Source: Alphaproteobacteria bacterium (GTDB lineage: Bacteria; Pseudomonadota; Alphaproteobacteria; DSM-16000; Inquilinaceae). From it: a stretch of DNA of 64,000 nt. The notes under the pieces are model-generated. The model saw only the letters and a program-made list of their open reading frames with translations. It did no database searches and was not told the origin of the DNA. Below, one piece after another: positions 15,437-33,720 of the stretch (position 1 is the first letter of the stretch; each line of letters starts with the position of its first letter). The stretch lies in assembly GCA_028281925.1 (NCBI GenBank), contig JANQIX010000034.1, positions 62,001 through 126,000 on the forward strand. The letters run 5' to 3'. Position numbers and translations under genes: made by a program.

Positions 15437-16528
15437 GTGCGACCGGCGGATGCCCGCCGAACGGCTATGGCGTCCATGACGGCAATGCCTGAAACCGCAG
15501 GCGCGACGATGAAGGTCGATGCCATCCGGCCGGATCGTCTGATGGCCGGCCAGCGTGAGGCGATGGCCCGCGACATCGCCATGCTCGCGTCCTGGCGGGA
15601 CGGGTTCGTGGACGTCGATTGCCCCGCCTGCGACAGCGACGGTCGTATCGATCTCTACGAGAAGTACGGGCTACAGCATCACCGCTGCACGAACTGCGGA
15701 ACGCAGTACATCTCTCCGCGGCCGACGGACGAGATGCTGGGCCGTTTCTATGCCCAGTCTGAGAACTATGCCTATTGGGCGGCGCATATCTATCCGGCGA
15801 GTGCGGAAACACGGCGGGTGCAGGTGTTCCGGCCACGCCTGGAACTGGTGCGCCGCGTATTGGCGGATCGCGGTCGGAAGGGCGGCACCCTGGTTGAGGT
15901 CGGTGCCGGCTATGGCATCCTGCTGGAGGAAGCGGCAGCCACTGAGCTATTCGATCGGTGCGTCGGTCTGGAGCCGTCGCCGCGGTTGGCGGAGATCTGC
16001 CGCAACCGCGGCATCGAGGTGATCGAGCAACCATACGAGACCACCGCCCTCGATCAGCCGGCTGACATCATCGTTGCCTTCGAGGTGATCGAACATCTGT
16101 TCCGGCCGGCAGACTTCACGGCCTGGCTGTTTCGCTCCGTGCGGCCCGGCGGCCTGATCCTGCTGACCTGCCCCAACATCTGCGGCTTCGACACGCTGTT
16201 GCTAGGCCGCCACTCAACGGCGGTTGACCACCAGCACCTGAACTATTTCACGCCGGCCAGCATCGCACGGCTTCTCGAGCGCTTCGGCTTCGTTGACGTG
16301 ACGGTCACGACGCCCGGACGGCTTGATGTGGACCTGGTGCGCCGCGCTTGGCGTGAAGGCGTGGTGGACGAGGCGGCCCTCGGCCCCTTCGTGGCGCATC
16401 TTCTGGACGCCAGCGACGATGCGCTCGACCAGCGATTGCAGCAGTTCCTGCAACAGGCGGGACTGTCCTCGCACATGATGGCCGTCGCTCGCCGGCCGGA
16501 TGCGTCGGGCGAAAAGGCAGCGCCTTGA
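15437..16528 (+). CDS. Class I SAM-dependent methyltransferase with N-terminal zinc-type motif
   Basis: About 330-363 residues; start uncertain (GTG 15437, or ATGs at 15467, 15476, 15485, 15509, none with a good ribosome site). An N-terminal C-x2-C pair (VDCPACDSDG) and a second (CTNCGTQYISPRP) form a likely zinc ribbon, then the methyltransferase domain with LVEVGAGYGILLEEA and FEVIEHLFRPADF. This arrangement is common in sugar methyltransferases of polysaccharide clusters. Its stop is overlapped by the TTG start of the next gene. Target sugar unknown. Confidence 0.82.
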   Translation: MRPADARRTAMASMTAMPETAGATMKVDAIRPDRLMAGQREAMARDIAMLASWRDGFVDVDCPACDSDGRIDLYEKYGLQHHRCTNCGTQYISPRPTDEMLGRFYAQSENYAYWAAHIYPASAETRRVQVFRPRLELVRRVLADRGRKGGTLVEVGAGYGILLEEAAATELFDRCVGLEPSPRLAEICRNRGIEVIEQPYETTALDQPADIIVAFEVIEHLFRPADFTAWLFRSVRPGGLILLTCPNICGFDTLLLGRHSTAVDHQHLNYFTPASIARLLERFGFVDVTVTTPGRLDVDLVRRAWREGVVDEAALGPFVAHLLDASDDALDQRLQQFLQQAGLSSHMMAVARRPDASGEKAAP

Positions 16529-17700
16529 TTGCGGTCTTCCTGAACAACAAGCTGATAACGGCCGACACCATCCTGCCGCTTATGGTCTCGGTCGGTCGCC
16601 GCGCGCCCGGACGCCGCATCCGCTACTACTGCTTCGACCGGGCCACGGAAGCGGAGATCAAACGCAACACTGTGCTTCACGACGCCGCAGTCGAGACCGG
16701 ACGGATCGTCTGCCTTGGTCGACCTGCCGGTGCGGGCCCGTTGCGGATCTTCATCCATCGCCTCGGGGTCCTCTGGCATCTGGCTGGCCTGTTCTTGCAG
16801 GCACTGCGGCCGCGCACCGTCTTCATCCATTTCAAGGCCTTGAACTTTCAGCCATTTCGGCTGCTGGCAAAGCTCAGGCCACGCGCCACCCTATTCGTTG
16901 AGGCCAATTGCTGGGGGTATCACCCCGTGATGATGGAAAAGGTTGGCAATCTGGGGCGGCCACCGCGCCGCCTGCCACCGCCCGGCGCCGGCGGTGTGAT
17001 TGTCGGGTTCGCCAAAGACTGGCCTGAACTCACCCGCGAGGAGAGTGCCGGAAAACAGCGGCTGGTCGTGCCGTCGACCCATCTCAATCGTGACTGGCTC
17101 GACTGGGTGCGCAGCCGTGCCGACAGGTATTTGGCTGCAGATCTGACGGCAGCCGGCCATCCGACGGACGCCCCGATCCTGGTCTACATTCTGTCGTATT
17201 TCGGGGAGCTCGGCTTCCTGCGCAGCCCCGACAGCATGCTCACCCTCTTCGACGAGACTATGGACGCTTTGGCCGAGGTGTCGGACCGGGCCGTCATCCT
17301 GTTGAAGCCGCATGCGATTACAGACCGGGCCGTTGTGGACGCCGCCATCGCCGCGCGCCCGCAGGCCCGATTTGCGGTCACCAATCTGCACCCGGCGGTG
17401 CTCGCGACCAGGGCTGCGGCGTTCGTTGGCAACTACTACAGCACGACCTTCGGCGATGCGACGGCGTTCGGCGTGCCCACGGTCGAGTACACGGACTATT
17501 CGGACGAGACGCTGGCCGTCACCGAAGGCGGCTCGATGCGCGGCGAGTTCGTCCGGCATTTCCTGCTGCGCAATGCGGACGATCCGACGGAGATCCATCG
17601 TCTGCTCTCCAAACTGGTCGACGTGGATCGCGGCGAGCGGGTTCCGACGCCGGCCGATGAGGATCGCCTGAGGCCCATGCTTGAGCTTTTGGCGGCCTGA
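16525..17700 (+). CDS. Putative GT-B/capsule-type surface carbohydrate transferase
   Basis: 391 residues from a TTG start that overlaps the previous stop (TTGA), with AAGG eight bases ahead. No clear single family by eye. The C-terminal half has ILLKPHAITDRAV and GNYYSTTFGDATAFGVPTVEY, which resemble the nucleotide-binding half of capsule polysaccharide/CDP-glycerol-type transferases (basic-Pro-His and Ser-Thr-Thr-x-Gly-Asp-Ala). The N-terminal half has a hydrophobic stretch near residue 80. It is one of three candidates in the cluster to attach the finished sugar. Confidence 0.6.
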   Translation: MIAVFLNNKLITADTILPLMVSVGRRAPGRRIRYYCFDRATEAEIKRNTVLHDAAVETGRIVCLGRPAGAGPLRIFIHRLGVLWHLAGLFLQALRPRTVFIHFKALNFQPFRLLAKLRPRATLFVEANCWGYHPVMMEKVGNLGRPPRRLPPPGAGGVIVGFAKDWPELTREESAGKQRLVVPSTHLNRDWLDWVRSRADRYLAADLTAAGHPTDAPILVYILSYFGELGFLRSPDSMLTLFDETMDALAEVSDRAVILLKPHAITDRAVVDAAIAARPQARFAVTNLHPAVLATRAAAFVGNYYSTTFGDATAFGVPTVEYTDYSDETLAVTEGGSMRGEFVRHFLLRNADDPTEIHRLLSKLVDVDRGERVPTPADEDRLRPMLELLAA

Positions 17701-18855: not shown

Positions 18856-19662
18856 ATGAGGTTGGGGGGACGTCGCGGGCTGCGCTGGCGCCTGCTGCCG
18901 GCGGTGCGTGTCGCATTTCGCATCTTCGGCCGCGGCTGGAACGACTTCTACGCCTGGATGCTGGACCGCCAGGAGCGGCACAACAACATCAACCGAATAC
19001 TGGCGCGGGACCGTCATGTGGAGGGCAAGGACAAAGGGCTCTATGACATCTCCCGCGGGCCCATCCACGCCGCGTTCCTCAAACGCCACGGCTTGCGGCC
19101 GACGGACCGGTTCCTTGATTTTGGATGCGGCTACGGACGGACGGCCGTCGCCATCCTCGACTATCTGGAACCCGGCCACTATGTGGGTGTGGACCTTTCG
19201 GCCGAGCGCATCCGAATGTGCCATGAATATGCGGACCTGGAAGGTCTGAGCGAACGGCGTCCCCGGTTCGTCGACAGCACCGACAACGCGATGCCCTATC
19301 TTGAGGACGGCAGCATCGATGTCATCTTCGCCACCTCGGTGTTCTCGCACATGCCGATGGATCAGTGGCATGAAGTCCTGGAGGCGGCGCGGCGCGTCCT
19401 CGCCCCAGGCGGCGCCTTCATCCTCAACTACCACACCTCCGGCACGACCGAGCGAAACGTGAGTGACCTGAAGGACTATTACTATCCGCAGAGCGAGGTC
19501 GATGCGGCGTTCGCTCGGTTCGGCTTCGAGGCTGAGTTGCTGGACGGGTGGCACGACGATCTGTCGCCTGAAAACCGGGACCCATTGCTTCGCATGGTCC
19601 GCCTGCGCCTCGCCGAGGGAGCAGGCGCGCGCGCCGCGGCGGCGAGCGAGGCCGCCGTCTGA
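18856..19662 (+). CDS. Class I SAM-dependent methyltransferase
   Basis: 268 residues, AAGGAG ten bases before the ATG. The SAM loop is FLDFGCGYGRTAVAIL (about residues 93-108), then GVDLSAERI and FATSVFSHMPMDQWH. The N-terminal 50 residues are basic with a hydrophobic patch and may associate with the membrane. Its stop overlaps the next ATG (TGATG). It belongs to the sugar cluster; the substrate is unknown. Confidence 0.82.
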   Translation: MRLGGRRGLRWRLLPAVRVAFRIFGRGWNDFYAWMLDRQERHNNINRILARDRHVEGKDKGLYDISRGPIHAAFLKRHGLRPTDRFLDFGCGYGRTAVAILDYLEPGHYVGVDLSAERIRMCHEYADLEGLSERRPRFVDSTDNAMPYLEDGSIDVIFATSVFSHMPMDQWHEVLEAARRVLAPGGAFILNYHTSGTTERNVSDLKDYYYPQSEVDAAFARFGFEAELLDGWHDDLSPENRDPLLRMVRLRLAEGAGARAAAASEAAV

Positions 19663-20609
19663 TGTCTGAGGCCGTGTCCGAACTGCCCCAGACCCAGCCG
19701 CTCTGCTATTGCTACGGCATAACCAAGGACGACGTCCGGGAGCATTTCCGCAGACCCGGATCGACCTATGAGAGTCTGGTCGACGAGACGCGCATCGCGA
19801 CCAAGTGTACAGCCTGCCGGCTGGACCTGGATCTGCTGCTGTCCGAGCTGCACGCCGTGCCGGGCGGCCCGTCGGCAAATGTCCGCTCCCCGGAAACGTC
19901 CGACCAAGGAAGCGGTCTCGGGTCGTGGGCTCGGCCGCAAGACCTCAGTGACGCCGGGTTCGTCCATGTCGACGGCGACATCACGACCGTGCTGCGGGTG
20001 GCCAATCAGGGGCTGCTGTTCGACGACACGACGCGGGTCGTCCCGTACAAATGGACGTTGCGCGTCTTCACCGGTGCCGGTCGCCTCGCCGCCAAGCGGG
20101 GCGGTTCGCTGGCGGTGGAGCAGGATGTCTCGATCGACTTCGCGGATCTGGTGGACCCGCCGTTTTCCGGCTGGTTCCTGATCAGCCTCTATCCGCGTGG
20201 TGAGGGCCTTTGTGGCACAACGCGGCCCCAGTTGATCGTGCTGGGTGCGGGCTGGGCAAGCCCGGTCCATACGCAGTTCCTGTCAATGGCCTGCCGACAC
20301 AAGGCAGCGTTGCTGTTCAGCGAAGGCGGCCGCACGGGGGCGATGATCTCGCTGATCAATGCGTCGCGGGCATCGAACGCCGTCACCATCTCGCTCGCCA
20401 CCGAAGTCGGGCGCGCTGTCGCGAATACGGAGATCCGCCTCGTCGGCTATGGCTCCCGCCTGGCCAACCTCGACGAGCTGTTCGGTCCCCTCGACGCCGA
20501 GGGCATTTTGACGGTCTCCGTGCGGAGCCGCGAGCCGGTGGCCAAGCATCTCATTCTGCGGAACCGGGACGGCTCCTGGAGCCAGAACCATTTTCCGAAC
20601 GTGAAGTGA
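19662..20609 (+). CDS. Unclassified protein with N-terminal BFD-like [2Fe-2S] domain
   Basis: 315 residues. Residues 14-64 carry a C-x-C-x31-C-x2-C pattern (LCYCYGITKDDVREHF ... KCTACRLDLDLLL), matching the [2Fe-2S]-binding domain of bacterioferritin-associated ferredoxin (BFD, Fer2_BFD). The remaining 240 residues are beta-rich and I cannot assign them; they show a loose resemblance to the next protein, including an SLINAS / LLINPY segment after a glycine-rich turn. No signal peptide is seen. It is sandwiched between methyltransferase genes and overlaps the next gene by GTGA. The function is unknown; a redox- or iron-responsive component of glycan synthesis is one speculation. Confidence 0.6.
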   Translation: MSEAVSELPQTQPLCYCYGITKDDVREHFRRPGSTYESLVDETRIATKCTACRLDLDLLLSELHAVPGGPSANVRSPETSDQGSGLGSWARPQDLSDAGFVHVDGDITTVLRVANQGLLFDDTTRVVPYKWTLRVFTGAGRLAAKRGGSLAVEQDVSIDFADLVDPPFSGWFLISLYPRGEGLCGTTRPQLIVLGAGWASPVHTQFLSMACRHKAALLFSEGGRTGAMISLINASRASNAVTISLATEVGRAVANTEIRLVGYGSRLANLDELFGPLDAEGILTVSVRSREPVAKHLILRNRDGSWSQNHFPNVK

Positions 20610-21430
20610 CACAGAATATCGCCCACTACCTGTCGCCGATGATCTTCCCCCTGTTTCCGGAGGAGGCAGGGACGGTCTACATCGACTACAACCTGAACCA
20701 CATCTTCGACGTCCGTGGCGGTGGAGGCTTCAACGGCCAGGTCACCGTCACGGTCCGCCAGTTCGTCGAAGGCGACTGCGGAGTCGATGACGTCTGGACG
20801 GTGGAGGTGACGGATAACCGCGTCGCACAGCCGGTTATCCAGAGGCGGCTTTCGGGCCAAGGATACGGCTATGTCGAGATCCACATCGAAGCCGACGCGC
20901 CGGCGTTCCGCAAGATCCTGGCACCGCCCGGCTACGCTCTCCTGCGCACCCGTTCGGGCAGCGCCATCGTCCTGGTATCCGATCAGAAATACGCCAATCC
21001 CCGCGTGGTCGACGAGATCCGCGAGACTGGAACGTTCTGCATGGTCCACACCGCCGGATACGTCGATCCGTCCACCGGGTTCGGCAACTCTCTGCTGCTG
21101 ATCAATCCCTACGAGCAGACGGTGGTGACCCGCATCCACGGTGAGAACGGCCGCCGCGTGACGGAGCGGTTGCCAAGCCGCAGCGTGCGCCAAGTTCCCT
21201 TGGATCCGGTTCTGACACCCGGTCAATGGGGCACCTATATGGTCACGGGCAACAACCGGATGATCACCTACGACATCCGTCACGCATACGGCCAGCCCAC
21301 GGCCATCACCAGCCTCGACCATCTGGACGTGTTCAGCGGCATGCGGACGCATCGCGAACATGGTGCGGTGGACTGGGCGCGCTCTGCGTCCCGCCGTTTC
21401 CTTCGCGAACGCGGCCTGCGCTACAGCTGA
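20606..21430 (+). CDS. Unclassified beta-rich protein, possible paralogue of the preceding gene
   Basis: 274 residues from GTG 20606, which overlaps the previous stop; ATG 20639 is the alternative. The frame is open further upstream but that part lies inside the preceding gene. The protein is rich in predicted beta strands, with NSLLLINPYEQTVVTRIHG near the middle and GTYMVTGNNRMITYDIRHA near the end. No domain is recognised. The layout and several segments resemble the C-terminal part of the preceding protein, so the two may form a pair. It lacks the Cys motif of that protein. Confidence 0.55.
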   Translation: MTQNIAHYLSPMIFPLFPEEAGTVYIDYNLNHIFDVRGGGGFNGQVTVTVRQFVEGDCGVDDVWTVEVTDNRVAQPVIQRRLSGQGYGYVEIHIEADAPAFRKILAPPGYALLRTRSGSAIVLVSDQKYANPRVVDEIRETGTFCMVHTAGYVDPSTGFGNSLLLINPYEQTVVTRIHGENGRRVTERLPSRSVRQVPLDPVLTPGQWGTYMVTGNNRMITYDIRHAYGQPTAITSLDHLDVFSGMRTHREHGAVDWARSASRRFLRERGLRYS

Positions 21431-22555: not shown

Positions 22556-23641
22556 ATGACGGACCGCACCCTTTTGCCGCGCTTCGAGCTGGCCGGCCGG
22601 CCCATCGGAGCGGATGCGCCCGCGTTCATTACCTTTGAGGCCGGCCCCACCCATGACGGGGAAGCAACGGCCTGCGCGCTTGTCCGCCTGGCGAGCGAGG
22701 CCGGTGCGGATGCCGTCAAGTTCCAGGTTCTGGATCCGGACCGGCTTGTCGCCGACAAGGCGATGCCGTTCTCTTACGACGTGCTGCTCGACCGCGCGAG
22801 CGGCGCCACCGAGACGGTCAGCGAGCCGCTTTACGACATTCTCTGCAGGCGCGTGCTGTCGCGCGATGCCTGGCGCCGGGTAAAGGCGGAAGCCGACCGG
22901 CTGGGTCTGGCCTTCTTCGCAACGGCGCTGTTCGACGACGAGGTGGAGTTCCTCGCGGAACTCGGGTGTCACTCCATCAAGATCGCTTCGGGCGACGTCA
23001 ACCATCTGCCGCTGATCCGCCGCGCGGCCGGCACCGGCATGTGCCTGCAGCTCGATACCGGGAACGCGACGTTGGGCGAGATCGAAGCCGCGGTGGATGC
23101 CGCCTTGGATGTGGGGTGCGGGCGCATCGTCGTGCATCAGTGCCCGTCGGGCTACCCGGCGCGGCTGGAGAGCATCAATCTCAACATCATACCGACGCTG
23201 GCGCGGCTGTTCGGTTGTCCGGTCGCCTATTCCGACCACACGCCGGGTTGGGAGATGGACGTCGCTGCCGTGGCGCTGGGTGCGCATATGGTTGAGAAGA
23301 CCATTACGCTCGACCGCACGACGCGGAGCTGCGAGCACATGTTCTCGCTTGAGCCGTCCGACATGGCCGCGTTCGTGCGGGTGATCCGGGATGTCGAGAC
23401 GGCGCTGGGCGGACCGCGGCGGATCTTGCACCCCGAGGAACGCCAGCGCCGCAACGCCGTGCGCCGATCAGCCTGGCTGGTTGACGGCGCCCAGTCCGGC
23501 GACCGGCTGGGGGACCTGAAGGTGGAGTTCCGGCGTCCGGGTGACGGCGTTGCGCCCGATCTGTTCGAGCGCTTGGCGGACGCGCGATTGGCCCGGAACG
23601 TACCGCCCGGCCACCGCCTAGAGCTTGGCGATCTGGGCTGA
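22556..23641 (+). CDS. NeuB-family nonulosonate synthase (first copy, SpsE/LegI-like)
   Basis: 361 residues; condenses phosphoenolpyruvate with a six-carbon amino sugar to a nine-carbon nonulosonic acid. The barrel begins with ITFEAGPTHDGEA where relatives have IAEIGxNHNG; then AVKFQVLDPD, IKIASGDVNHLPLI, and YSDHTPGWEM, a family hallmark. The last 60 residues form the SAF (antifreeze-like) domain, ending with the GHRLELGDL segment. It differs strongly from the PseI-type copy at 25545 and probably serves a second sugar. GGAG lies upstream of the ATG. Confidence 0.87.
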   Translation: MTDRTLLPRFELAGRPIGADAPAFITFEAGPTHDGEATACALVRLASEAGADAVKFQVLDPDRLVADKAMPFSYDVLLDRASGATETVSEPLYDILCRRVLSRDAWRRVKAEADRLGLAFFATALFDDEVEFLAELGCHSIKIASGDVNHLPLIRRAAGTGMCLQLDTGNATLGEIEAAVDAALDVGCGRIVVHQCPSGYPARLESINLNIIPTLARLFGCPVAYSDHTPGWEMDVAAVALGAHMVEKTITLDRTTRSCEHMFSLEPSDMAAFVRVIRDVETALGGPRRILHPEERQRRNAVRRSAWLVDGAQSGDRLGDLKVEFRRPGDGVAPDLFERLADARLARNVPPGHRLELGDLG

Positions 23642-23667: not shown

Positions 23668-25548
23668 TTGCACCTGGACCCACGCGACTTCTTCGACTGG
23701 GTGAGGCCACTCCGGCGCCTGGCGTCGCTGCGTCTCGTCGGGCGCCGGCAGGTGACCGGTATCGCCTTGCTCACCGTGCTGGCCGTGCTGTTCGAGAGCT
23801 TCAGCATCGCCCTTCTGATCCCCGTCCTCGACTACATCCAGGCCGACGGCGACGTCGCCGGCCTGGCGGCCGAAGGCTGGCTGTGGGCGACATTGGTCGA
23901 TGGGGCGAACTGGCTTGGCGTTCCGATCACGCTCGCCTCGCTGCTGCTCGGCATCTTCGTGCTGGTCTGCCTGCGCCAGGTGACGGCCTATGCGCGGACC
24001 GTCTATCTGGCCACGGTTCGCCAGCGGTTGGGCCAGCGAATGTCGGTGTCGCTGTTCAGCAGCGTGCTTGCGGCATCGTCACAGTACATCCGCAACTTCA
24101 ATGGCGGGTCCTTCGTCTTCCTGCTGGGCCAGCAGGTGCAATCGGCGAATGCGCTGGTCTACTCCTTCGCCAATCTGGCCTCACTTGCGGTGACGTTCCT
24201 GGCCTACGGCGCGGTCACCTTTGCCGTGGCGCCGCTGCCTGCCCTGAGCGGCCTTATCCTGGGGGCCTTCGCGCTCTTGGCGGCGTCGTATTATGTGCGC
24301 CGCGCGCGGTCGATCAGTCGCCGGCTGGTGGTCGGAGGCGAAGCGTGGACCAGCTTTGCCGCAGAGCGCTGGCGCGCCTGGCGGCTGCTGAAGATGGGCG
24401 GAATGCTGGAGCGCGAGGAAGCCGAGGCCGATCGACTGGCCGGGCGGATCTGCAGTCTCTCCATCGGTCTTGCCCGGGTGATGGGCCGGCTGGAGCTGGC
24501 GCTGTCTCTTTTCATTCTGGGAGCGATCCTAGCAGCGCTCTATGGCGCCGTGGAGTTCCTCTCGGTGTCGGTCAGCGTCGTCACCGTGTTCGTACTGGTG
24601 GCGCTGCGCCTGGCACCGCTGCTGCGCCAGTTCGCCAATCTGCGGCAGTCGATCGCGGTCCAGGGCGCAAATCTCGACCGGATGATCACTGCCTTCGAGG
24701 AATGTCGGGCGGCACGCGAGTGCGACGACGGCACCACGGACATGCCCAGCCTGCGCCGCGGCATTACCTTTCGCGGCGTCCACTTTGCCTATGGCGATGG
24801 CAGTATACCGGCGCTGAACGGGGTCGACGCACATATTCCGGCCGGCCGGATGACCGCCATCGTCGGCCCCTCGGGCTCCGGAAAGTCGACCATGGTCGAC
24901 CTTGTCCTGCGCCTGTTGAGGCCGACATCGGGCGACATCCTGATGGACGACGTGCCCATCGGGGAGATCCGACTGCGGCCTCTGCGCGAGCGCATCGCTC
25001 TGGTGATGCAGGATCCGATCCTGTTCGACACCACCATCGCTGAGAACGTGCGCTATCTTCGCCAGTCCGCATCGCTCGATCAGGTACGCGAGGCGTGCCG
25101 GCGCGCCCATGCAGGAGAATTCGTCGAGGCTATGCCGGACGGCTATGACACGGTGATCGGCGAAGGCGGAACTCGCTTGTCCGGTGGCCAGCGCCAGCGT
25201 CTGGTAATCGCCCAGGCGCTGCTCGCCGATCCGGAGATCCTCATCCTCGACGAGCCGACAAGCGCGCTGGATTTCGAAAGCGAACGCAAAGTCCAGGAGG
25301 TGCTGGAGGCCTTGGCACGCGAGCGGACGGTCACCATCATCGTGATTTCCCATCGACCGTCGACCGTCGCGAGGGCCGACCATATGATCGTGCTGAACGA
25401 CGGCCATGTGGCCGAAACGGGCCCCCCGGGCCGCCTACTGGAAAATGGCGGCTGGTTCGCCGCGATGATGCGGCTGCCGGAGAACCATGCCCTCGGCGGC
25501 GCCTCGACGCCGGCTGAGGCCATGCCGGAGAAGGAGGTCGCATCTTGA
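23668..25548 (+). CDS. ABC exporter, fused permease and ATPase (MsbA-like)
   Basis: 626 residues from a TTG start. Residues 1 to about 330 hold the transmembrane domain with six hydrophobic segments; the ATPase follows, with Walker A GPSGSGKST (about 400), signature LSGGQRQRL (about 505), Walker B LILDEPTSALD (about 525) and the switch His in VISHRPS. Such half-transporters flip lipid-linked sugars or lipids. Its place between the two NeuB-family genes suggests export of a lipid-linked glycan or its building block. It overlaps the next gene by TTGA. Confidence 0.9.
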   Translation: MHLDPRDFFDWVRPLRRLASLRLVGRRQVTGIALLTVLAVLFESFSIALLIPVLDYIQADGDVAGLAAEGWLWATLVDGANWLGVPITLASLLLGIFVLVCLRQVTAYARTVYLATVRQRLGQRMSVSLFSSVLAASSQYIRNFNGGSFVFLLGQQVQSANALVYSFANLASLAVTFLAYGAVTFAVAPLPALSGLILGAFALLAASYYVRRARSISRRLVVGGEAWTSFAAERWRAWRLLKMGGMLEREEAEADRLAGRICSLSIGLARVMGRLELALSLFILGAILAALYGAVEFLSVSVSVVTVFVLVALRLAPLLRQFANLRQSIAVQGANLDRMITAFEECRAARECDDGTTDMPSLRRGITFRGVHFAYGDGSIPALNGVDAHIPAGRMTAIVGPSGSGKSTMVDLVLRLLRPTSGDILMDDVPIGEIRLRPLRERIALVMQDPILFDTTIAENVRYLRQSASLDQVREACRRAHAGEFVEAMPDGYDTVIGEGGTRLSGGQRQRLVIAQALLADPEILILDEPTSALDFESERKVQEVLEALARERTVTIIVISHRPSTVARADHMIVLNDGHVAETGPPGRLLENGGWFAAMMRLPENHALGGASTPAEAMPEKEVAS

Positions 25549-26615
25549 CGACGCCAGGCGCGTTTGCCAGCGAGGTGGTCATTGCCGGACGCCCCATCGG
25601 GCCGGGGCACTCGCCGTTCATGATTGCGGAGATGTCGGCGAACCACGGCGGCGACCTGGACCGTGCACTGCGCATCATCCGCCAGGCTGCGGCGGCCGGC
25701 GCCGATGCCATCAAGTTCCAGGCCTATACGGCCGACATGCTGACGCTCGATCACGATGGGCCGGGCTTCGTCATTGAATCCGACAGTCCCTGGAAGGGGG
25801 AACGGCTCTACGACCTCTACAAGCGCGCGGCCACGCCCTATGAGTGGTTTCCCCAGTTGTTCGCTGCGGCGCATGAGGTCGGCCTGATCGCCTTTGCCAG
25901 CCCGTTCGATGCGGGTGCCGTGTCCATGCTGCAGGCGCTGGACGCACCGGCGTACAAGATCGCCTCGTTCGAGGCGGTCGACACCGAGCTGATCGCTTGC
26001 TGCGCCGCGACCGGCAAACCGCTGATCATCTCCACCGGCATGTCGGATGAAGCGGAGATCGGGGACGCTCTCGATGCCGTTCGTGGTGCCGGCGGGCGTG
26101 AGGTTGTGCTGCTGAAATGTACCAGTGCCTACCCCGCCGACGCCGGTGAGGCCAATCTGCGCACCATTCCCGCCATGGCGGCGCGCTTTGATGTGCCTGT
26201 CGGCCTGTCCGACCACACGCTGGGCACGGCAGTCTCGGCCGCAGCCTGCGCGTTGGGGGCGTGCGCGGTCGAGAAGCACGTGATCGACGCGCGGCAACCG
26301 GCGACGGCCGACAGCGAGTTCTCGCTGCTGCCCGACGAGTTGAACCGTCTTGTCGCCGACTGCCGCGACGCTGCGTCGGCGCTGGGCGCGGTGCATTTCG
26401 GCCCGGCGGAGCGGGAACGCCAGAGCCTGGCCTTTCGCCGGTCGCTCTATGCGGTACGGCCGATCGCCCAGGGAGAGGCCATCAGCGCGGACAATGTGCG
26501 CAGCGTCCGCCCGAGCTTCGGCCTGCCCGTGAAGACCTTCCGAGAGTTGCTGGGACGCCGGGCGCGCGCCGCCATCGATGCCGGCACGCCCATGTCCTGG
26601 GATCTGGTGGAGTAG
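25545..26615 (+). CDS. pseI: Pseudaminic acid synthase PseI (second NeuB-family synthase)
   Basis: 356 residues. TTG 25545 is chosen because AAGGAGG (25531-25537) lies at ideal distance and the codon overlaps the previous stop. MIAEMSANHGGDLDRAL, AIKFQAYTADML, SPWKGERLYDLYKRA, and the aromatic PYEWFPQLF are PseI-like; KIASFEAVDTELI and LSDHTLG follow, with a C-terminal SAF domain (RRSLYAVRPIAQGEAIS). It would join phosphoenolpyruvate to 2,4-diacetamido-2,4,6-trideoxy-L-altrose, the PseG product. Confidence 0.9.
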   Translation: MTTPGAFASEVVIAGRPIGPGHSPFMIAEMSANHGGDLDRALRIIRQAAAAGADAIKFQAYTADMLTLDHDGPGFVIESDSPWKGERLYDLYKRAATPYEWFPQLFAAAHEVGLIAFASPFDAGAVSMLQALDAPAYKIASFEAVDTELIACCAATGKPLIISTGMSDEAEIGDALDAVRGAGGREVVLLKCTSAYPADAGEANLRTIPAMAARFDVPVGLSDHTLGTAVSAAACALGACAVEKHVIDARQPATADSEFSLLPDELNRLVADCRDAASALGAVHFGPAERERQSLAFRRSLYAVRPIAQGEAISADNVRSVRPSFGLPVKTFRELLGRRARAAIDAGTPMSWDLVE

Positions 26616-26658: not shown

Positions 26659-27189
26659 ATGCAGCAGTATACGTTGAGAGATGTTCGCCGTCGGGAAGAC
26701 GATGCCCGGCTGGTCTTCCAGTGGCGCAACGATCCGGTCACGCGCGAAGGGTCGTTTCACACCGGCAAGCGAGAGTGGGCGGAGTTCTGGCCGGGGTTTC
26801 GTGACGGCTTCCCCCTGGCCGGATCGCCGCTGCCGCAGTTCGTCCTGTGTGACGGCAGCCCGGTTGCCTTCCTGCGCTTCGACCCGCCGCGCCCCGGTGC
26901 CGGGCATGACGAACTGATCGAGGTGTCGATCAACGTGGCGCCGGAGGCCCGCGGTCGCGGCATCGGCGTGTCGGCGCTGCTGTTGGCGGAAGACTACCTC
27001 AGGCGTTTCGGCCATGACGCCATCCTGGCGCTGGTGAAGGCCGACAACGCGGTGTCTCGGCACGTGTTCGAGAAGGCGGGATACGAGGCGACCGGGGAAG
27101 TGAGCATCACACCGGCGGGCGAGCAGGTTCCGACCCTGGCAATCCGCTATATCCGCCGGCTCGGCAATGGGCCTGGAGGGTCGGCATGA
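26659..27189 (+). CDS. GNAT N-acetyltransferase, PseH-like
   Basis: 176 residues with the GNAT core: VFQWRNDPVTREGSFHT at the N-terminus resembles PseH and related UDP-4-amino-sugar acetyltransferases, and the acetyl-CoA loop is VAPEARGRGIGVSALLL (about 94-110), followed by VKADNAVSRHVFEKAGYEATG. It probably acetylates the amino group of a dideoxy sugar nucleotide. It sits between pseI and a cytidylyltransferase gene and overlaps the latter by ATGA. A second GNAT at 35789 could do the same step on the other sugar. Confidence 0.8.
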   Translation: MQQYTLRDVRRREDDARLVFQWRNDPVTREGSFHTGKREWAEFWPGFRDGFPLAGSPLPQFVLCDGSPVAFLRFDPPRPGAGHDELIEVSINVAPEARGRGIGVSALLLAEDYLRRFGHDAILALVKADNAVSRHVFEKAGYEATGEVSITPAGEQVPTLAIRYIRRLGNGPGGSA

Positions 27190-27899
27190 CCAGCGGCGGC
27201 CGTGTCGCCGTGATCCCGGCCCGCGGCGGCTCGCGCCGGCTGCCGCGCAAGAACGTCATGCCGGTGCGCGGACGGCCGATGATCGCCTGGACGGTTGCCG
27301 CCGCCGTCGACAGCAGCGTGTTCGAGCGGATCCTTGTGTCGACGGACGACGCAGAGATTGCTGCGGCTGCGGATCTGGACGGAGCCACGGTGCTGGATCG
27401 GCCGCCCGAACTTGCCGGAGATGATGTCCCCCTGGTGAGCGTTCTGCACCACGTGCTGTCCAAAGACAGCATGGGCGCAACGGCCGCCTGCCTGCTGATG
27501 CCCAATTGCCCCTTTCGCACCGCCGATGACATTGGCGCATCGGCCCGCCGTTTCGAGCAGGCCGGCGTGTCTTCGCTCATGTCCGTGGTGGCCTATGACT
27601 GGCGACGGCCGGACTGGGCACTGACCATGGCGGATGATCGCCAGGTGGCCTTCGCCTATCGGGATCTGGCGCCCACGCCGACGGAACGCTCGCCGCGCCT
27701 CGTCTGTCCGTCCGGTGCGATCCGCTGGGTTGCGGTCGATAGATTCCTCGCCAATCCGCGGTTCTATGCGGAAGACACCGAAGGGTTCGAACTGCCCTGG
27801 CATCGGGCTCTGGATATTGACGAACCAAGTGATCTTGTGTGGAGCGATCTGATCACGCTGGCCCTGGATCAGGGCATGTCGCTGGGTGAGGTCACGTGA
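27186..27899 (+). CDS. pseF: Acylneuraminate-type cytidylyltransferase PseF
   Basis: 237 residues. The CTP-binding loop AVIPARGGSRRLPRKNV is at residues 8-24, followed by RILVSTDDAEIAAAA and LLMPNCPFRTADDI (metal-binding region). It activates a nonulosonic acid to its CMP form. Position two genes after pseI makes CMP-pseudaminate synthesis likely, though it cannot be told from its paralogue next door by eye. It overlaps both neighbours by four bases. Confidence 0.87.
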   Translation: MTSGGRVAVIPARGGSRRLPRKNVMPVRGRPMIAWTVAAAVDSSVFERILVSTDDAEIAAAADLDGATVLDRPPELAGDDVPLVSVLHHVLSKDSMGATAACLLMPNCPFRTADDIGASARRFEQAGVSSLMSVVAYDWRRPDWALTMADDRQVAFAYRDLAPTPTERSPRLVCPSGAIRWVAVDRFLANPRFYAEDTEGFELPWHRALDIDEPSDLVWSDLITLALDQGMSLGEVT

Positions 27900-28603
27900 C
27901 CCGGCCCCGCTGCATGATCCCCGCCCGTGGCGGGTCGAAGCGCCTGGCGCGCAAGAACATCCTGCCGTTGGCCGGCCGTCCCATGCTGGCCTGGACGATC
28001 GAGGCCGCCGCCGAGAGCGGAATCTTCGATCGCGTGCTGGTGTCCACCGAAGATGCGGAGATCGCCGCAATTGCCAAAGCCGCCGGCGCCGAGGTTCCGG
28101 ATATGCGCGACCCGGCGCTGGCGGGCGATACCGTGACCAATGTCGCCGTTGCCCTGGACCTCGTCCGCGTCATGGCGTGGTCGGACGAAGATGCCGTGGT
28201 CTGCCTGCAGCCGTCGTCACCGTTGCGCACGGGGACCCAGATTGCCGATGCATGGCGGCGGTACTGCGATGCGGCGGCAGACTTCCTGGTCAGCGTCTCG
28301 CCGGTCGACCCGCACCATTTCCACTGGGCTATGCAAGAGGTCGACGGACGCTGGGGAATGGTCTTCGGCGACCGTTACATGACCGTCCGCCAGGCGCTGC
28401 CGGAGATCTACGGCCCGAACGGTGCCGTCAAGATCGCGCGGATCGGGGCATTGCGGCGGAAGGGCGATTTCTTCGGCGAGCCGCTGGCGGTATCCGTGAT
28501 GCCCCAGGCAGCATCGCTGCACGTGGCCACCGCCACCGACCTCGCGGTTGCCGAGACGCTTATGGGACAGCGCAGCCTGGCCGCAGCGGACGCCAGCGCA
28601 TGA
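27896..28603 (+). CDS. Acylneuraminate-type cytidylyltransferase (second, NeuA/LegF-like)
   Basis: 235 residues from a GTG that overlaps the previous stop. The loop MIPARGGSKRLARKNILPL, the RVLVSTEDAEIAAIA segment, and VCLQPSSPLRTGTQI match NeuA and LegF. It is clearly paralogous to the gene just upstream, yet the two differ throughout, so this is an old duplication or separate recruitment. Being next to the PtmA-like SDR, it is the better candidate for CMP-legionaminate. Confidence 0.86.
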   Translation: MTRPRCMIPARGGSKRLARKNILPLAGRPMLAWTIEAAAESGIFDRVLVSTEDAEIAAIAKAAGAEVPDMRDPALAGDTVTNVAVALDLVRVMAWSDEDAVVCLQPSSPLRTGTQIADAWRRYCDAAADFLVSVSPVDPHHFHWAMQEVDGRWGMVFGDRYMTVRQALPEIYGPNGAVKIARIGALRRKGDFFGEPLAVSVMPQAASLHVATATDLAVAETLMGQRSLAAADASA

Positions 28604-29415: not shown

Positions 29416-30045
29416 ATGATCGGGGTCATCGACTATGACGCCGGCAACATCCGCTCGGTGCTGAACGCGTTGGAGTGGGTCGGCGCCTCCGCCCGCCTGA
29501 TCGGACAGACGGCAGAGATGGACGAGTGCCGCGGCCTGGTGCTGCCGGGCGTCGGCGCTTTCCGCTCCGCGATGGACGAACTGGAAGCCACGGGCCTGGC
29601 TGACGGCCTGCGGGAGTGGGCGTCGCATCGCCAGCGACCACTGCCCGGCGTGTGCGCCGGCATGCAGCTCTTGGCCGCCCGCGGCGAAGAAGGCGGCGCG
29701 TGCGACGGGCTGGGGCTGGCAAATGCCGAAGTCATTCGCATCACGCCAGTCGCTCCGGCCCGCGTGCCGCATATCGGCTGGAACGAGGTGGTGCGATACC
29801 GCGACGCTGTGTTGTGGGGGCCGCGGCAGCAGGCCTTCTGCTATTTCGCCCACAGCTATGCCATGACGTTCGGCGACCCGGCGGAGCGGTCGCGCTGGGT
29901 GGTCGGCGAGACCGATCACGGCGGGGCCATCGTGGCCATGATCGAACACGGCAACGTCATGGGCGCCCAGTTCCACCCGGAGAAGAGCCAGAAGGACGGG
30001 CTTGCCATCCTCCGGAACTTCGTCGAGGCGGCTGAGCGATGGTGA
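29416..30045 (+). CDS. hisH: HisH-like glutamine amidotransferase of sugar amidination
   Basis: 209-residue class I glutaminase. The nucleophile is in LPGVCAGMQLLA (Cys about residue 81) and the His-Glu pair in FHPEKSQ (about residue 188). HisH normally supplies ammonia to HisF in histidine synthesis. Here it lies with hisF and a PseA/WbpG family amidotransferase, the trio known from Pseudomonas O-antigen and pseudaminic acid amidination, so ammonia is probably channelled to an acetamido group. The usual hisA, hisB and hisIE neighbours are absent. Confidence 0.87.
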   Translation: MIGVIDYDAGNIRSVLNALEWVGASARLIGQTAEMDECRGLVLPGVGAFRSAMDELEATGLADGLREWASHRQRPLPGVCAGMQLLAARGEEGGACDGLGLANAEVIRITPVAPARVPHIGWNEVVRYRDAVLWGPRQQAFCYFAHSYAMTFGDPAERSRWVVGETDHGGAIVAMIEHGNVMGAQFHPEKSQKDGLAILRNFVEAAERW

Positions 30046-30797
30046 GAAAGCGCTTGGTCGTCAGCCTGCTCTGGCGCAACGGCGTCATCGTGCAGAGCGT
30101 GGGCTTCCGCCATACGAACGTGGTCGGCGACCCCAAGGTGGCGATCGAGTTCTTCAACGCCTGGGATGCCGATGAAATCGTGCTCTTGGACGTCACGCGC
30201 GACGCGGGCCGGCCGGAACGGTTCCTGGCCATGCTGCACCATGTCTCCAAGCACTGCTTCCTTCCGCTGACCGCCGGCGGCTGGGTCGCCGATGTGGCAA
30301 GGGCGCAGCTCTTGCTGGAGAATGGCGCCGACAAGGTGGTCGTCAACACGCGTGGGTTCGATGAGCCCGCGTTTCTGGGAGAACTGGCCGACAAGTTCGG
30401 CGCCCAGTGCGTGGTCGCCTCGATCGATGTGCGCGGGCAGGATCGCGAGACCTGGCAGGTCGCGGTCGACCGCGGCCGTCGGCCAACCGGCGTCGATCCG
30501 GTCTCGGCGGCCCGCCGGGCGGCCGAACATGGCGCCGGCGAGATCCTGCTGACCTCGATCGACCAGGACGGATCACTGAAGGGCTACGATCTCGACCTTG
30601 TCCGGACGGTTGCCGACGCAGTAGACATCCCCGTGATCGCCTTCGGCGGCGTCGGCGACTGGCGCCATCTGAAGGACGGCATCGATGCCGGTGCCGATGC
30701 CGTGGCCGCCGGAAACATCTTTCACTTCACCGAGCAGAGCACCCGGGCGGCCAAGACCTATCTGATCGACGCCGGCGCTCCGGTGCGGCCCCGTTAG
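30039..30797 (+). CDS. hisF: HisF-like cyclase subunit of sugar amidination
   Basis: 252-residue TIM barrel overlapping the hisH stop by seven bases. EIVLLDVTRDAG, ITAGGW-type LTAGGWVADVARA, VVASIDVRGQ, and SIDQDGSLKGYD follow the HisF pattern, and AFGGVGDWRHL near the C-terminus is in the second phosphate-binding loop position. In WbpG/PseA systems the HisF homologue passes ammonia from HisH to the sugar amidotransferase. It may be specialised away from histidine synthesis; the second half is conserved enough that catalysis cannot be ruled out. Confidence 0.86.
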   Translation: MVRKRLVVSLLWRNGVIVQSVGFRHTNVVGDPKVAIEFFNAWDADEIVLLDVTRDAGRPERFLAMLHHVSKHCFLPLTAGGWVADVARAQLLLENGADKVVVNTRGFDEPAFLGELADKFGAQCVVASIDVRGQDRETWQVAVDRGRRPTGVDPVSAARRAAEHGAGEILLTSIDQDGSLKGYDLDLVRTVADAVDIPVIAFGGVGDWRHLKDGIDAGADAVAAGNIFHFTEQSTRAAKTYLIDAGAPVRPR

Positions 30798-30821
30798 CCC
30801 AGACAGTGGGAACCTGACCCG

Positions 30822-32087
30822 ATGCGATACTGCGCGCGCTGCCTCTATCCGGAGAACGCCAAACCCTACATCATCTTCGACGACGAAGGCGTGTGCAGCG
30901 GCTGTCGCGTGGCCGAAGCCTATGACCGCGTCGACTGGGACCAGCGGTGGAAGCGGCTGGGCGAGATCCTTGCTGACTACAAGGCCAGGGCGCGCGCCGC
31001 GGGGGCACACTATGACTGCATCATCCCCGTCAGCGGCGGCAAGGACAGCCACTTCCAGGCCCATATCATCAAGCACATCCACGGGCTGAACCCGCTGTTC
31101 GTCACTTACAACCATCTGTTCAACGCGCCGCTGGGCTTGCGCAACCTCGAGAATCTGTTCTCGAAGTTGAACTGCGACCTGATCCGGTTCTCCAGCAACC
31201 CGGACACGGTGCGCCGCATCTCTCGCTACATGCTGAAGACCTGCGGCGACCTGACCTGGCACTACCATTGCGGCATCCTGACCTTCCCCATCCAGATTGC
31301 CGCGCGTTTCCGCATCCCGCTGATCATCTGGGCGGAGAACAACTTCTCCAACCTGGTCGGCACCTTCAATCCCGAAGACATGGTCGAATTCAGCCGCAAG
31401 CACCGCAAGGATTTCGGCCTGCGCGGCATCGAGGCGGACGAGCATCTGGGAGAGGCCTCCGGCCTCACCTGGCAGGACATCGGGCCCTTCCGCTACCCCG
31501 ACGACGACCTGATCGAAGAGGTCGGCGTGCGCGGCATCTATCTCTCGAACTTCGTGCGCTGGGACGAACATGCCCAGGCTGAAGAGATGCGGCGGCTCTA
31601 CGACTTCCAGCCCAGCGCGGAGGAGCGCGAACGCACGTTCAACCGCTATGCAAAGCTGGACGACCTGCACGCCAACGGCACGCACGACTACCTGAAGTAC
31701 CTGAAATTCGGCTACGGCCGGGCGACCGACGATGCGAGCACGCTAATCCGTGCCGGGCGCATGACCCGCGAGGAAGGCATCGAGATGGTCGCCCGCTATG
31801 ATCACGTCCGGCCCTCCGACCTCGATGTCTGGCTCGATTTCGTCGGCATGGGCGAAGAGGAGTTCATGACCTCTGTCGATCCGCTGCGCGACCCGGAGAT
31901 CTGGGAGCGGGACGCTGCAGGCCGCTGGCAGGTGACTGACAGCGTGGTCAACCATCGCGACGACCCGGGCGTCGAGGCTGCGCGCCAACCGCTGAAGGCC
32001 AATGCGGGCTGGGAGTTCCCGGCCGGACGCTTTGGCCTGACCGATCGTCGCTGGCTGACGGAAGCCGATGGCTACAAGTACCTCTGA
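30822..32087 (+). CDS. N-acetyl sugar amidotransferase, PseA/WbpG family
   Basis: 421 residues. The zinc-type Cys pairs MRYCARCLYP and GVCSGCRVAE lie at the N-terminus, then the PP-loop IIPVSGGKDSHFQA (about residues 67-80), which binds ATP. The family turns an N-acetyl group of a sugar into acetamidino with ammonia from HisH/HisF. The substrate here is probably a pseudaminate or legionaminate, or its CMP form. The C-terminal half (YGRATDDASTLIRAGRMTREE) is typical of the family. Confidence 0.92.
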   Translation: MRYCARCLYPENAKPYIIFDDEGVCSGCRVAEAYDRVDWDQRWKRLGEILADYKARARAAGAHYDCIIPVSGGKDSHFQAHIIKHIHGLNPLFVTYNHLFNAPLGLRNLENLFSKLNCDLIRFSSNPDTVRRISRYMLKTCGDLTWHYHCGILTFPIQIAARFRIPLIIWAENNFSNLVGTFNPEDMVEFSRKHRKDFGLRGIEADEHLGEASGLTWQDIGPFRYPDDDLIEEVGVRGIYLSNFVRWDEHAQAEEMRRLYDFQPSAEERERTFNRYAKLDDLHANGTHDYLKYLKFGYGRATDDASTLIRAGRMTREEGIEMVARYDHVRPSDLDVWLDFVGMGEEEFMTSVDPLRDPEIWERDAAGRWQVTDSVVNHRDDPGVEAARQPLKANAGWEFPAGRFGLTDRRWLTEADGYKYL

Positions 32088-32118
32088 TGGCTCGGCAGAA
32101 CAACGGACACGCCCGCCT

Positions 32119-33720
32119 ATGAGCGACCTCGACCGCATTCTGCCGTTGTGCCCGGACGGGCCGGTGCCGAAGACGGTTCTGCTATTCTCGCGGATCGACT
32201 TTGCCTGGCTCAATCCCATCCTGATGGCCGGCATGCGCGCGCGTTGGGGGACTCGATTCATCGTTGTGGCGCCCGCGGAGACCTGGCGCGCCTTCTACAC
32301 GCCGCATCTGGGCCCTGACGATCGGCTGCTGGTCGCAGCGGATCTGGATGGCCAAGCGGCCGAGGTACCGCTGGAAGACGAGTCAACGGTCTTCGCGCGG
32401 GCCCGCGCACTCGAGGACCGCTTCAGCATCGCCCTGATGCGCGACGTGTTGCAGCAGGCGCGCCACCTCGCCTGCTCTTGGCTGACCTTCGCGCCGCAGA
32501 GCGCCTTTGCCCATCAGACGCCGCCACCCTACTCCGAGGTGCTGAAGCGGGCGATCTTCTTTGTCGAGTACTTCCAGACCCTGATCGCCGATGAAGAGGT
32601 CGACCTGGTCGTAGAGCGGCCCGGCGATCTCTTGTCCACCTGCTGCCTGATGGTGGCCGAGGCGGCCGGGCTTGCCACGACTTTCTGGCTACCGGCGCGC
32701 AACGGCAGCTTCGTGATGTTCTCCGACGGCCCCTATCTCGGTCACCGGCTGATCCGCACCGCCTACGATCGGCTGGAAGATCCCGAGCCGCTGCCGCTGG
32801 AGGGTCTTATGCCGCCGGACGACTCCCGGCGGAACTTCGCGCGGGCCAACGAATTGCGCTCGCTGCGGCATCTCGGCCGTCGGGTCTGGGAGGTCTCGCG
32901 CGACCATGCAATCTGGGGCGCGCAGCGGCTCCTGCGCCGACGGAAACACAGGGGGCTGACCTATGGTGCCGTGCTGCGCCAGCAGTTCGCCGTGTGGCGC
33001 CTGCACAACGCGCTGGCGCGCCGCGTGGTGAGTGATGAGCAGGAGATCCGCCGGCAGCCTTTCGTGCTGTTCCTGCTGCAGTACGAGCCGGAGTACACCA
33101 CCCTTTCTCTGGCCCGTCAGTTCAACGACACCCGGGCCATCGTCCAGCAATGCGCCCTGTCGTTGCCGGCCGGCGTTCGGCTGGTGGTAAAGGAGAACGT
33201 GAACTCCATCGGAAACCGGGCGCTCTCGTTCTATGACGACTTGCTTAGGATGCCGAACGTGATCCTGGCGGATCACCGCATCCGAGGCCTCGACCTGATG
33301 CCGCACGCCGCTGCCGTGGCGACGGTCAGCAGCACGGGCGCGCTGGAAGCGAACCTGTTCGGGCGGCGTGCCGTCATCTTCGCCCAGCAGGTGGAGTATG
33401 GGTTTCTGCCCGACATCCACACCGTGACCGGCTTCACCGATCTGCCCGCAGTGCTGCGCCACGCGATCGAAGATCTGGACGCGGCAGAACGGCAGGCGAT
33501 CCGGATCCGCGCCACACGCTATCGCCAGGCGCTGGAGGCGGTGTCATTCCAGGCACCGGGAACGCGGCCGTTCCGCGGCACGGAGACCACGCTGCCCGAG
33601 GGTGAGGCGGACCGTGCTGTCGACCGACTGCTCGACTGCTTCCGGCTGCAGGATGCGGCTCGCAGACGGGCAAGCGCCGAGGCGCAGCCGCCCGTGCTGC
33701 TGGAAACAGGGACGGAGTGA
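32119..33720 (+). CDS. Capsule polysaccharide biosynthesis-like (KpsC/KpsS-type) protein
   Basis: 533 residues from ATG 32119; the frame is open upstream but the part before lies in the pseA gene. The C-terminal half carries RLVVKENVNSIGNRALSFY, then PHAAAVATVSSTGALEANLFG, the Ser-Ser/Thr-x-Gly-x-Glu-Ala motif of KpsC/KpsS-like GT-B enzymes. The N-terminal half has VDLVVERPGDLLSTCC. It is a good candidate for attaching the nonulosonic acid to its acceptor. No signal or membrane segments seen. Confidence 0.72.
   Translation: MSDLDRILPLCPDGPVPKTVLLFSRIDFAWLNPILMAGMRARWGTRFIVVAPAETWRAFYTPHLGPDDRLLVAADLDGQAAEVPLEDESTVFARARALEDRFSIALMRDVLQQARHLACSWLTFAPQSAFAHQTPPPYSEVLKRAIFFVEYFQTLIADEEVDLVVERPGDLLSTCCLMVAEAAGLATTFWLPARNGSFVMFSDGPYLGHRLIRTAYDRLEDPEPLPLEGLMPPDDSRRNFARANELRSLRHLGRRVWEVSRDHAIWGAQRLLRRRKHRGLTYGAVLRQQFAVWRLHNALARRVVSDEQEIRRQPFVLFLLQYEPEYTTLSLARQFNDTRAIVQQCALSLPAGVRLVVKENVNSIGNRALSFYDDLLRMPNVILADHRIRGLDLMPHAAAVATVSSTGALEANLFGRRAVIFAQQVEYGFLPDIHTVTGFTDLPAVLRHAIEDLDAAERQAIRIRATRYRQALEAVSFQAPGTRPFRGTETTLPEGEADRAVDRLLDCFRLQDAARRRASAEAQPPVLLETGTE

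What the first reader, a model, noticed from the sequence alone, without database searches (positions are those of the whole stretch)
19662..21430. BFD-like [2Fe-2S] domain protein and an adjacent similar protein inside a glycan cluster
The 19662 product begins with C-x-C-x31-C-x2-C, as in bacterioferritin-associated ferredoxin, joined to an unassigned beta-rich domain. The following gene product resembles that domain. An iron-sulfur module in a sugar cluster is unexpected, and I know no described protein with this architecture. It may be a redox-sensitive enzyme or regulator, or a scaffold.
Basis: partly seen in the sequence, partly recalled or inferred. Interest (0 to 1): 0.65.

Follow-up and report, generated by a model that had tools for sequence, protein, structure and literature searches.

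The report
Iron-sulfur/beta-sandwich protein pair in glycan clusters
Two neighbouring genes that no database describes, one carrying a ferredoxin-like iron-sulfur domain, travel together through scattered alphaproteobacteria and nearly always sit among genes that build unusual surface sugars, so they look like an unrecognised two-protein part of surface-sugar synthesis whose exact reaction is unknown.

Summary
Gene A (19662-20609, 315 aa) has a BFD-type [2Fe-2S] domain (Pfam PF04324, E 2.9e-6, above cut-off) joined to two predicted beta-sandwich domains that match nothing. Gene B (20606-21430, 274 aa, overlapping A by GTGA) matches no family. The same A-B pair occurs in ten further distinct alphaproteobacterial loci. 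In all 11, A and B are adjacent and all four cysteines are present, though most relatives keep only 15-50% identity. No A without B, no B without A and no A lacking the cysteines was seen. A's last domain is weakly but significantly related to B's last domain; the rest of the claimed resemblance was not detected. The pair is patchy (9 of 385 class genomes; none outside the class in a phylum sample). It lies in surface-sugar clusters: nonulosonate synthases (6/11), HisH-HisF amidation genes (7/11), a methyltransferase directly beside it (6/11). Most likely A and B form a cytosolic complex acting late in assembly or tailoring of these glycans, using the Fe-S cluster for electron transfer; a non-catalytic glycan-binding complex is almost as likely. 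Structure prediction was too poor to decide. No paper describing it was found. A new family built on a known domain; function inferred.

The parts
19662..20609 (+). gene A, 315 aa: BFD-type [2Fe-2S] domain + linker + two predicted beta-sandwich domains
   Evidence: homologues; dN/dS about 0.1-0.14 against the same-genus copy
19701..19844 (+). BFD domain (residues 14-61); Cys codons at 19704, 19710, 19806, 19815
   Evidence: PF04324 E 2.9e-6; profile aligned to bacterioferritin-associated ferredoxin 6e6s, E 0.0033
19947..20606 (+). A C-terminal region, two beta-sandwich-like domains (about residues 96-214 and 215-315); invariant N115, R188, H203, Q205, N233, H310; H296 in 10 of 11
   Evidence: alignments; strands in a low-confidence AlphaFold2 model; no Pfam or PDB sequence match for this region
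20606..21430 (+). gene B, 274 aa, beta-rich, no known family; invariant D154, N167, R218, H226, H239; K128 nearly so
   Evidence: pair conserved in 11 loci
21047..21355 (+). B last domain, weakly homologous to A's last domain
   Evidence: hhalign with shuffled and reversed controls; alignment
18856..19662 (+). SAM methyltransferase directly upstream (its last base is A's first); a relative lies beside A-B in 6 of 11 loci
22556..23641 (+). NeuB-type nonulosonate synthase (context)
25545..26615 (+). pseudaminic acid synthase PseI, 436 bits against a cut-off of 340 (context)
30039..32087 (+). HisF2/WbuZ-like protein and WbuX N-acetyl sugar amidotransferase (glycosyl amidation; context); a HisH-like match starts near 29416

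Best explanation
A and B are the two subunits of a cytosolic complex that acts on a nonulosonate-type (often amidated) surface glycan or its activated precursor, at a late tailoring or assembly step. A's N-terminal BFD domain holds a [2Fe-2S] cluster that passes electrons (from a general cellular ferredoxin reductase or ferredoxin) to a site formed by the beta-sandwich domains of A and B, where the conserved His, Asn, Arg and Gln residues lie. Shown here: the BFD domain, the four invariant Cys, the conserved co-inherited gene pair, the glycan-cluster context. Inferred: cluster binding, complex formation, electron transfer, substrate, and that the site is catalytic.
For: BFD domain by Pfam and by alignment to solved Bfd. 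Four Cys in 11 of 11 sequences at mostly 15-50% identity. A always beside B, with 4-base overlaps in three of the eight junctions listed and gaps of 4-22 bases in the other five; pairwise distances of A's C-terminal part and B correlate at r = 0.91, BFD against B r = 0.85. Several polar residues invariant in otherwise diverged proteins. WbuX is associated with the pair at genome level: 6/7 pair-bearing against 66/365 other genomes, Fisher P 2.6e-4. In known fusions of this domain (NirB, NifU, CopZ, Bfd; own knowledge) the cluster carries electrons or is held permanently.
Against: No flavin or NAD(P) ferredoxin reductase was recognised among the neighbouring genes looked at. The C-terminal domains look like Ig/FN3-type sandwiches, more often binders than enzymes. 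No homologue of known function; structure models are of low confidence, so no active site could be located. The WbuX association may only reflect the kind of cluster or shared ancestry.
Confidence: 0.38

Rival explanations
1. A-B is a non-catalytic glycan-recognition or assembly complex: the beta-sandwich domains bind the growing or finished glycan or its synthases (as the Wzt C-terminal domain recognises capped O-antigen), and the [2Fe-2S] cluster is structural or makes binding redox-dependent.
For: Tandem beta-sandwich layout; the best Foldseek matches of the weak models are FN3 pairs, glycosidase sandwich domains and carbohydrate-binding modules. Methyltransferase beside the pair in 6 of 11 loci and ABC transporters in 4 of 11, reminiscent of capped-chain recognition.
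Against: Foldseek TM-scores are about 0.2 on models of mean pLDDT 42-49, so the matches say little beyond 'beta-sandwich'. Invariant His, Arg and Gln residues suggest more than a scaffold. A redox cluster is not needed for binding.
Confidence: 0.33
2. A is a redox or iron sensor that adjusts glycan synthesis to oxygen or iron supply through B.
For: A small [2Fe-2S] domain at the N-terminus and no catalytic domain recognised; one copy in the window's genome.
Against: No DNA-binding or known signalling domain; strict linkage to one kind of biosynthetic cluster; invariant polar residues in both proteins.
Confidence: 0.12
3. The cysteines bind zinc rather than a [2Fe-2S] cluster, and A is a structural partner of B.
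For: Four-Cys sites can bind Zn, and nothing here measures the metal (general knowledge; the motif itself is).
Against: Spacing and surrounding sequence match the BFD family, aligned to a solved Bfd.
Confidence: 0.1

Closest known systems
Bacterioferritin-associated ferredoxin (Bfd) and other Fer2_BFD domains (PF04324)
   Same: CxC-x(about 31)-CxxC pattern and surrounding sequence; domain length about 50 residues
   Different: Bfd is a free small protein acting on bacterioferritin; the fusions known to me are to flavin enzymes, Fe-S scaffolds or a copper chaperone, not to beta-sandwiches in glycan clusters
DUF5719 (PF18986)
   Same: Weak matches from one B and one A family member (E 0.011 and 0.11)
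   Different: Below any useful threshold; could be general beta-sandwich similarity; the window's own A and B do not match it
Wzt C-terminal carbohydrate-binding domain of ABC O-antigen exporters (own knowledge)
   Same: Cytosolic beta-sandwich in glycan clusters with a methyltransferase nearby
   Different: No sequence match found; A-B is not fused to an ABC protein; Wzt has no Fe-S domain

Membership tests
Fer2_BFD domain (PF04324) | Profile score above the curated cut-off | tested here: met
   27.9 bits against 26; 9 of 11 family members match at E <= 0.01
Fer2_BFD domain (PF04324) | Four cluster-binding Cys conserved | tested here: met
   11 of 11
Fer2_BFD domain (PF04324) | Binds a [2Fe-2S] cluster | not testable with these tools
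   needs spectroscopy
Bacterioferritin-associated ferredoxin (functional Bfd) | Stand-alone small protein | tested here: not met
   domain fused to about 250 further residues
Bacterioferritin-associated ferredoxin (functional Bfd) | Linked to bacterioferritin | tested here: inconclusive
   no ferritin gene recognised among the neighbours looked at, but neighbours were not all scanned
DUF5719 (PF18986) | Significant profile match | tested here: not met
   best E 0.011 in 1 of 10 B family members; the window's B gives none
Wzt C-terminal domain | Significant match to a known carbohydrate-binding domain family | tested here: not met
   no Pfam match and no PDB sequence match

The most novel reading that the evidence does not exclude
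A two-subunit [2Fe-2S] enzyme of a new domain combination (BFD domain driving a metal or substrate site between related beta-sandwich subunits) that carries out an undescribed redox modification of nonulosonic acids or of the glycans that carry them.
Probability: 0.22. Interest if true: 0.78.

Novelty: new variant of a known kind. Interest (0 to 1): 0.52.

Why it matters
Nonulosonic acids and amidated sugars decorate flagella, capsules and lipopolysaccharide, and their pathways are thought to be well mapped. A conserved iron-sulfur protein pair tied to such clusters would mean either an unknown redox step in sugar tailoring or redox control of surface-glycan assembly, and one knock-out plus glycan mass spectrometry would test it.

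Tried and rejected
Foldseek against PDB: only general beta-sandwich matches with TM about 0.2, not used as evidence of function. PHM/PNGase F-type oxygenase or hydrolase fold: one match at E 0.25, treated as chance. Sulfation link: APS-kinase genes lie near the pair in 4 of 10 genomes, two of them divergent CysC-like copies; not general, so not adopted. Plasmids: no relatives of A or B. Viral contigs: none for A by single-protein search; alignment searches could not run because no stretch was conserved enough. Papers: no description found. Full-length homology of A and B: not supported outside the last domain.

Full report
Observation. Gene A occupies 19662-20609 and gene B 20606-21430, with a GTGA overlap. 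B's GTG start agrees with the starts of its relatives (M..HYLxPxI); the long TTG frame from 20210 listed by the ORF finder is the same frame extended upstream. A's residues 14-61 match Pfam Fer2_BFD above the curated cut-off, and a profile of 11 sequences aligns CxC...CxxC with a solved bacterioferritin-associated ferredoxin. Chance is made very unlikely by shuffling. A has a third-position GC bias like that of its neighbours, and dN/dS against the same-genus copy is about 0.1-0.14 for A and 0.1-0.17 for B, so both are real genes under purifying selection.

Relatives. A genome-contig scan gave a same-genus copy (96%) and a 49% homologue in another alphaproteobacterial MAG. Whole-genome searches of the class with A and with a profile of B gave eight more genomes, and a search of one order a further one. 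That makes 11 non-redundant loci: the window, L003, G271, G129, G395, G096, G177, G198, G391, G348 and G756. In every one, reading the DNA showed A directly before B on the same strand. A separate class search with A's C-terminal region alone found only loci already known, so no BFD-less A was seen. A phylum sample of 398 genomes gave only the window's own genome. Distribution is patchy even within families, consistent with transfer or loss along with glycan clusters.

Conservation. Over 11 sequences A's invariant residues include the four Cys, N115, R188-P189, H203, Q205, N233 and H310, with H296 in ten; B's include D154, N167-P168, R218, H226 and H239, with K128 nearly so. The four Cys are the only Cys columns shared by all; B has none. 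The distances of A's C-terminal part, its BFD part and B correlate (r 0.85-0.91), as expected of co-inherited genes, although any genes sharing a history would do so.

A and B resemblance. BLASTP finds nothing. Profile comparison gives a clear link only for the last domains, where A N233 and B N167 align. A-D1 against B-D2 also exceeded its shuffles slightly (19.6 against 16.5), as would be expected if all are related sandwiches. The conserved His pairs near both C-termini look alike by eye (A: H..SxDH; B: KH..ISDHEH), but the profile alignment does not place them reliably; this is inference.

Setting. In the window the cluster holds NeuB- and PseI-type synthases, PseF-like cytidylyltransferases, a NeuD-type acetyltransferase, WbuX and WbuZ/HisF2. 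Across the 11 loci, within the stretches read: NeuB/PseI in 6, HisF2 in 7, HisH in 7, WbuX in 8, DegT aminotransferase in 6, a methyltransferase relative beside the pair in 6, an unnamed 550-aa family in 6. Of the WbuX count, the G271 hit in its stretch is a below-cut-off, asparagine-synthetase-like protein, but a full WbuX lies about 11 kb from its pair. L003 is a 3.9-kb contig and cannot show most of these genes. G096 is an exception, with PEP mutase and a phosphonopyruvate-decarboxylase-like enzyme, so the link is to surface-glycan clusters in general rather than to nonulosonates alone. At genome level WbuX is over-represented among pair-bearing genomes (6/7 against 66/365, Fisher P 2.6e-4); phylogeny and cluster type are uncontrolled confounders.

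Function. No solved or curated family covers the beta-rich parts. AlphaFold2 models had low confidence with three-sequence alignments. The model of A shows helices in the BFD part and two groups of strands after it, and supports no more than that. I therefore commit only moderately to a redox tailoring complex, with a binding/assembly complex nearly as likely.

Verdict. Real, conserved, undescribed in the sources searched, and probably functional. Novel as a protein family and domain architecture, built on a known Fe-S domain; the biochemical novelty is unproven.

Noticed in passing
window 22556-23641, 25545-26615, 27186-27899, 27896-28603: Two different nonulosonate synthases and two adjacent PseF-like cytidylyltransferases in one cluster, suggesting two different nonulosonic acids.
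   Followed up: partly
window 32068-33720: A 550-aa protein without Pfam or PDB match, with relatives in 6 of 11 A-B loci; possibly an unrecognised glycosyltransferase family.
   Followed up: partly
window 16525-17700: A 391-aa protein in the cluster with no family match; found only in the same-genus copy among the loci held.
   Followed up: no
L034 5803-6675 and L014 12231-12977: Related proteins with no Pfam match (47% identical) in two A-B clusters, sulfotransferase-like by eye.
   Followed up: no
G198 contig C33, 203607-209954: Three WbuX amidotransferase genes close together near an A-B pair.
   Followed up: no
L002 (JANQQD010000073.1): Record titled Anaerolineae carries the same cluster at about 96% identity; a contig of the same length is placed in the window's own genus, so the title's taxonomy is probably wrong.
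   Followed up: partly
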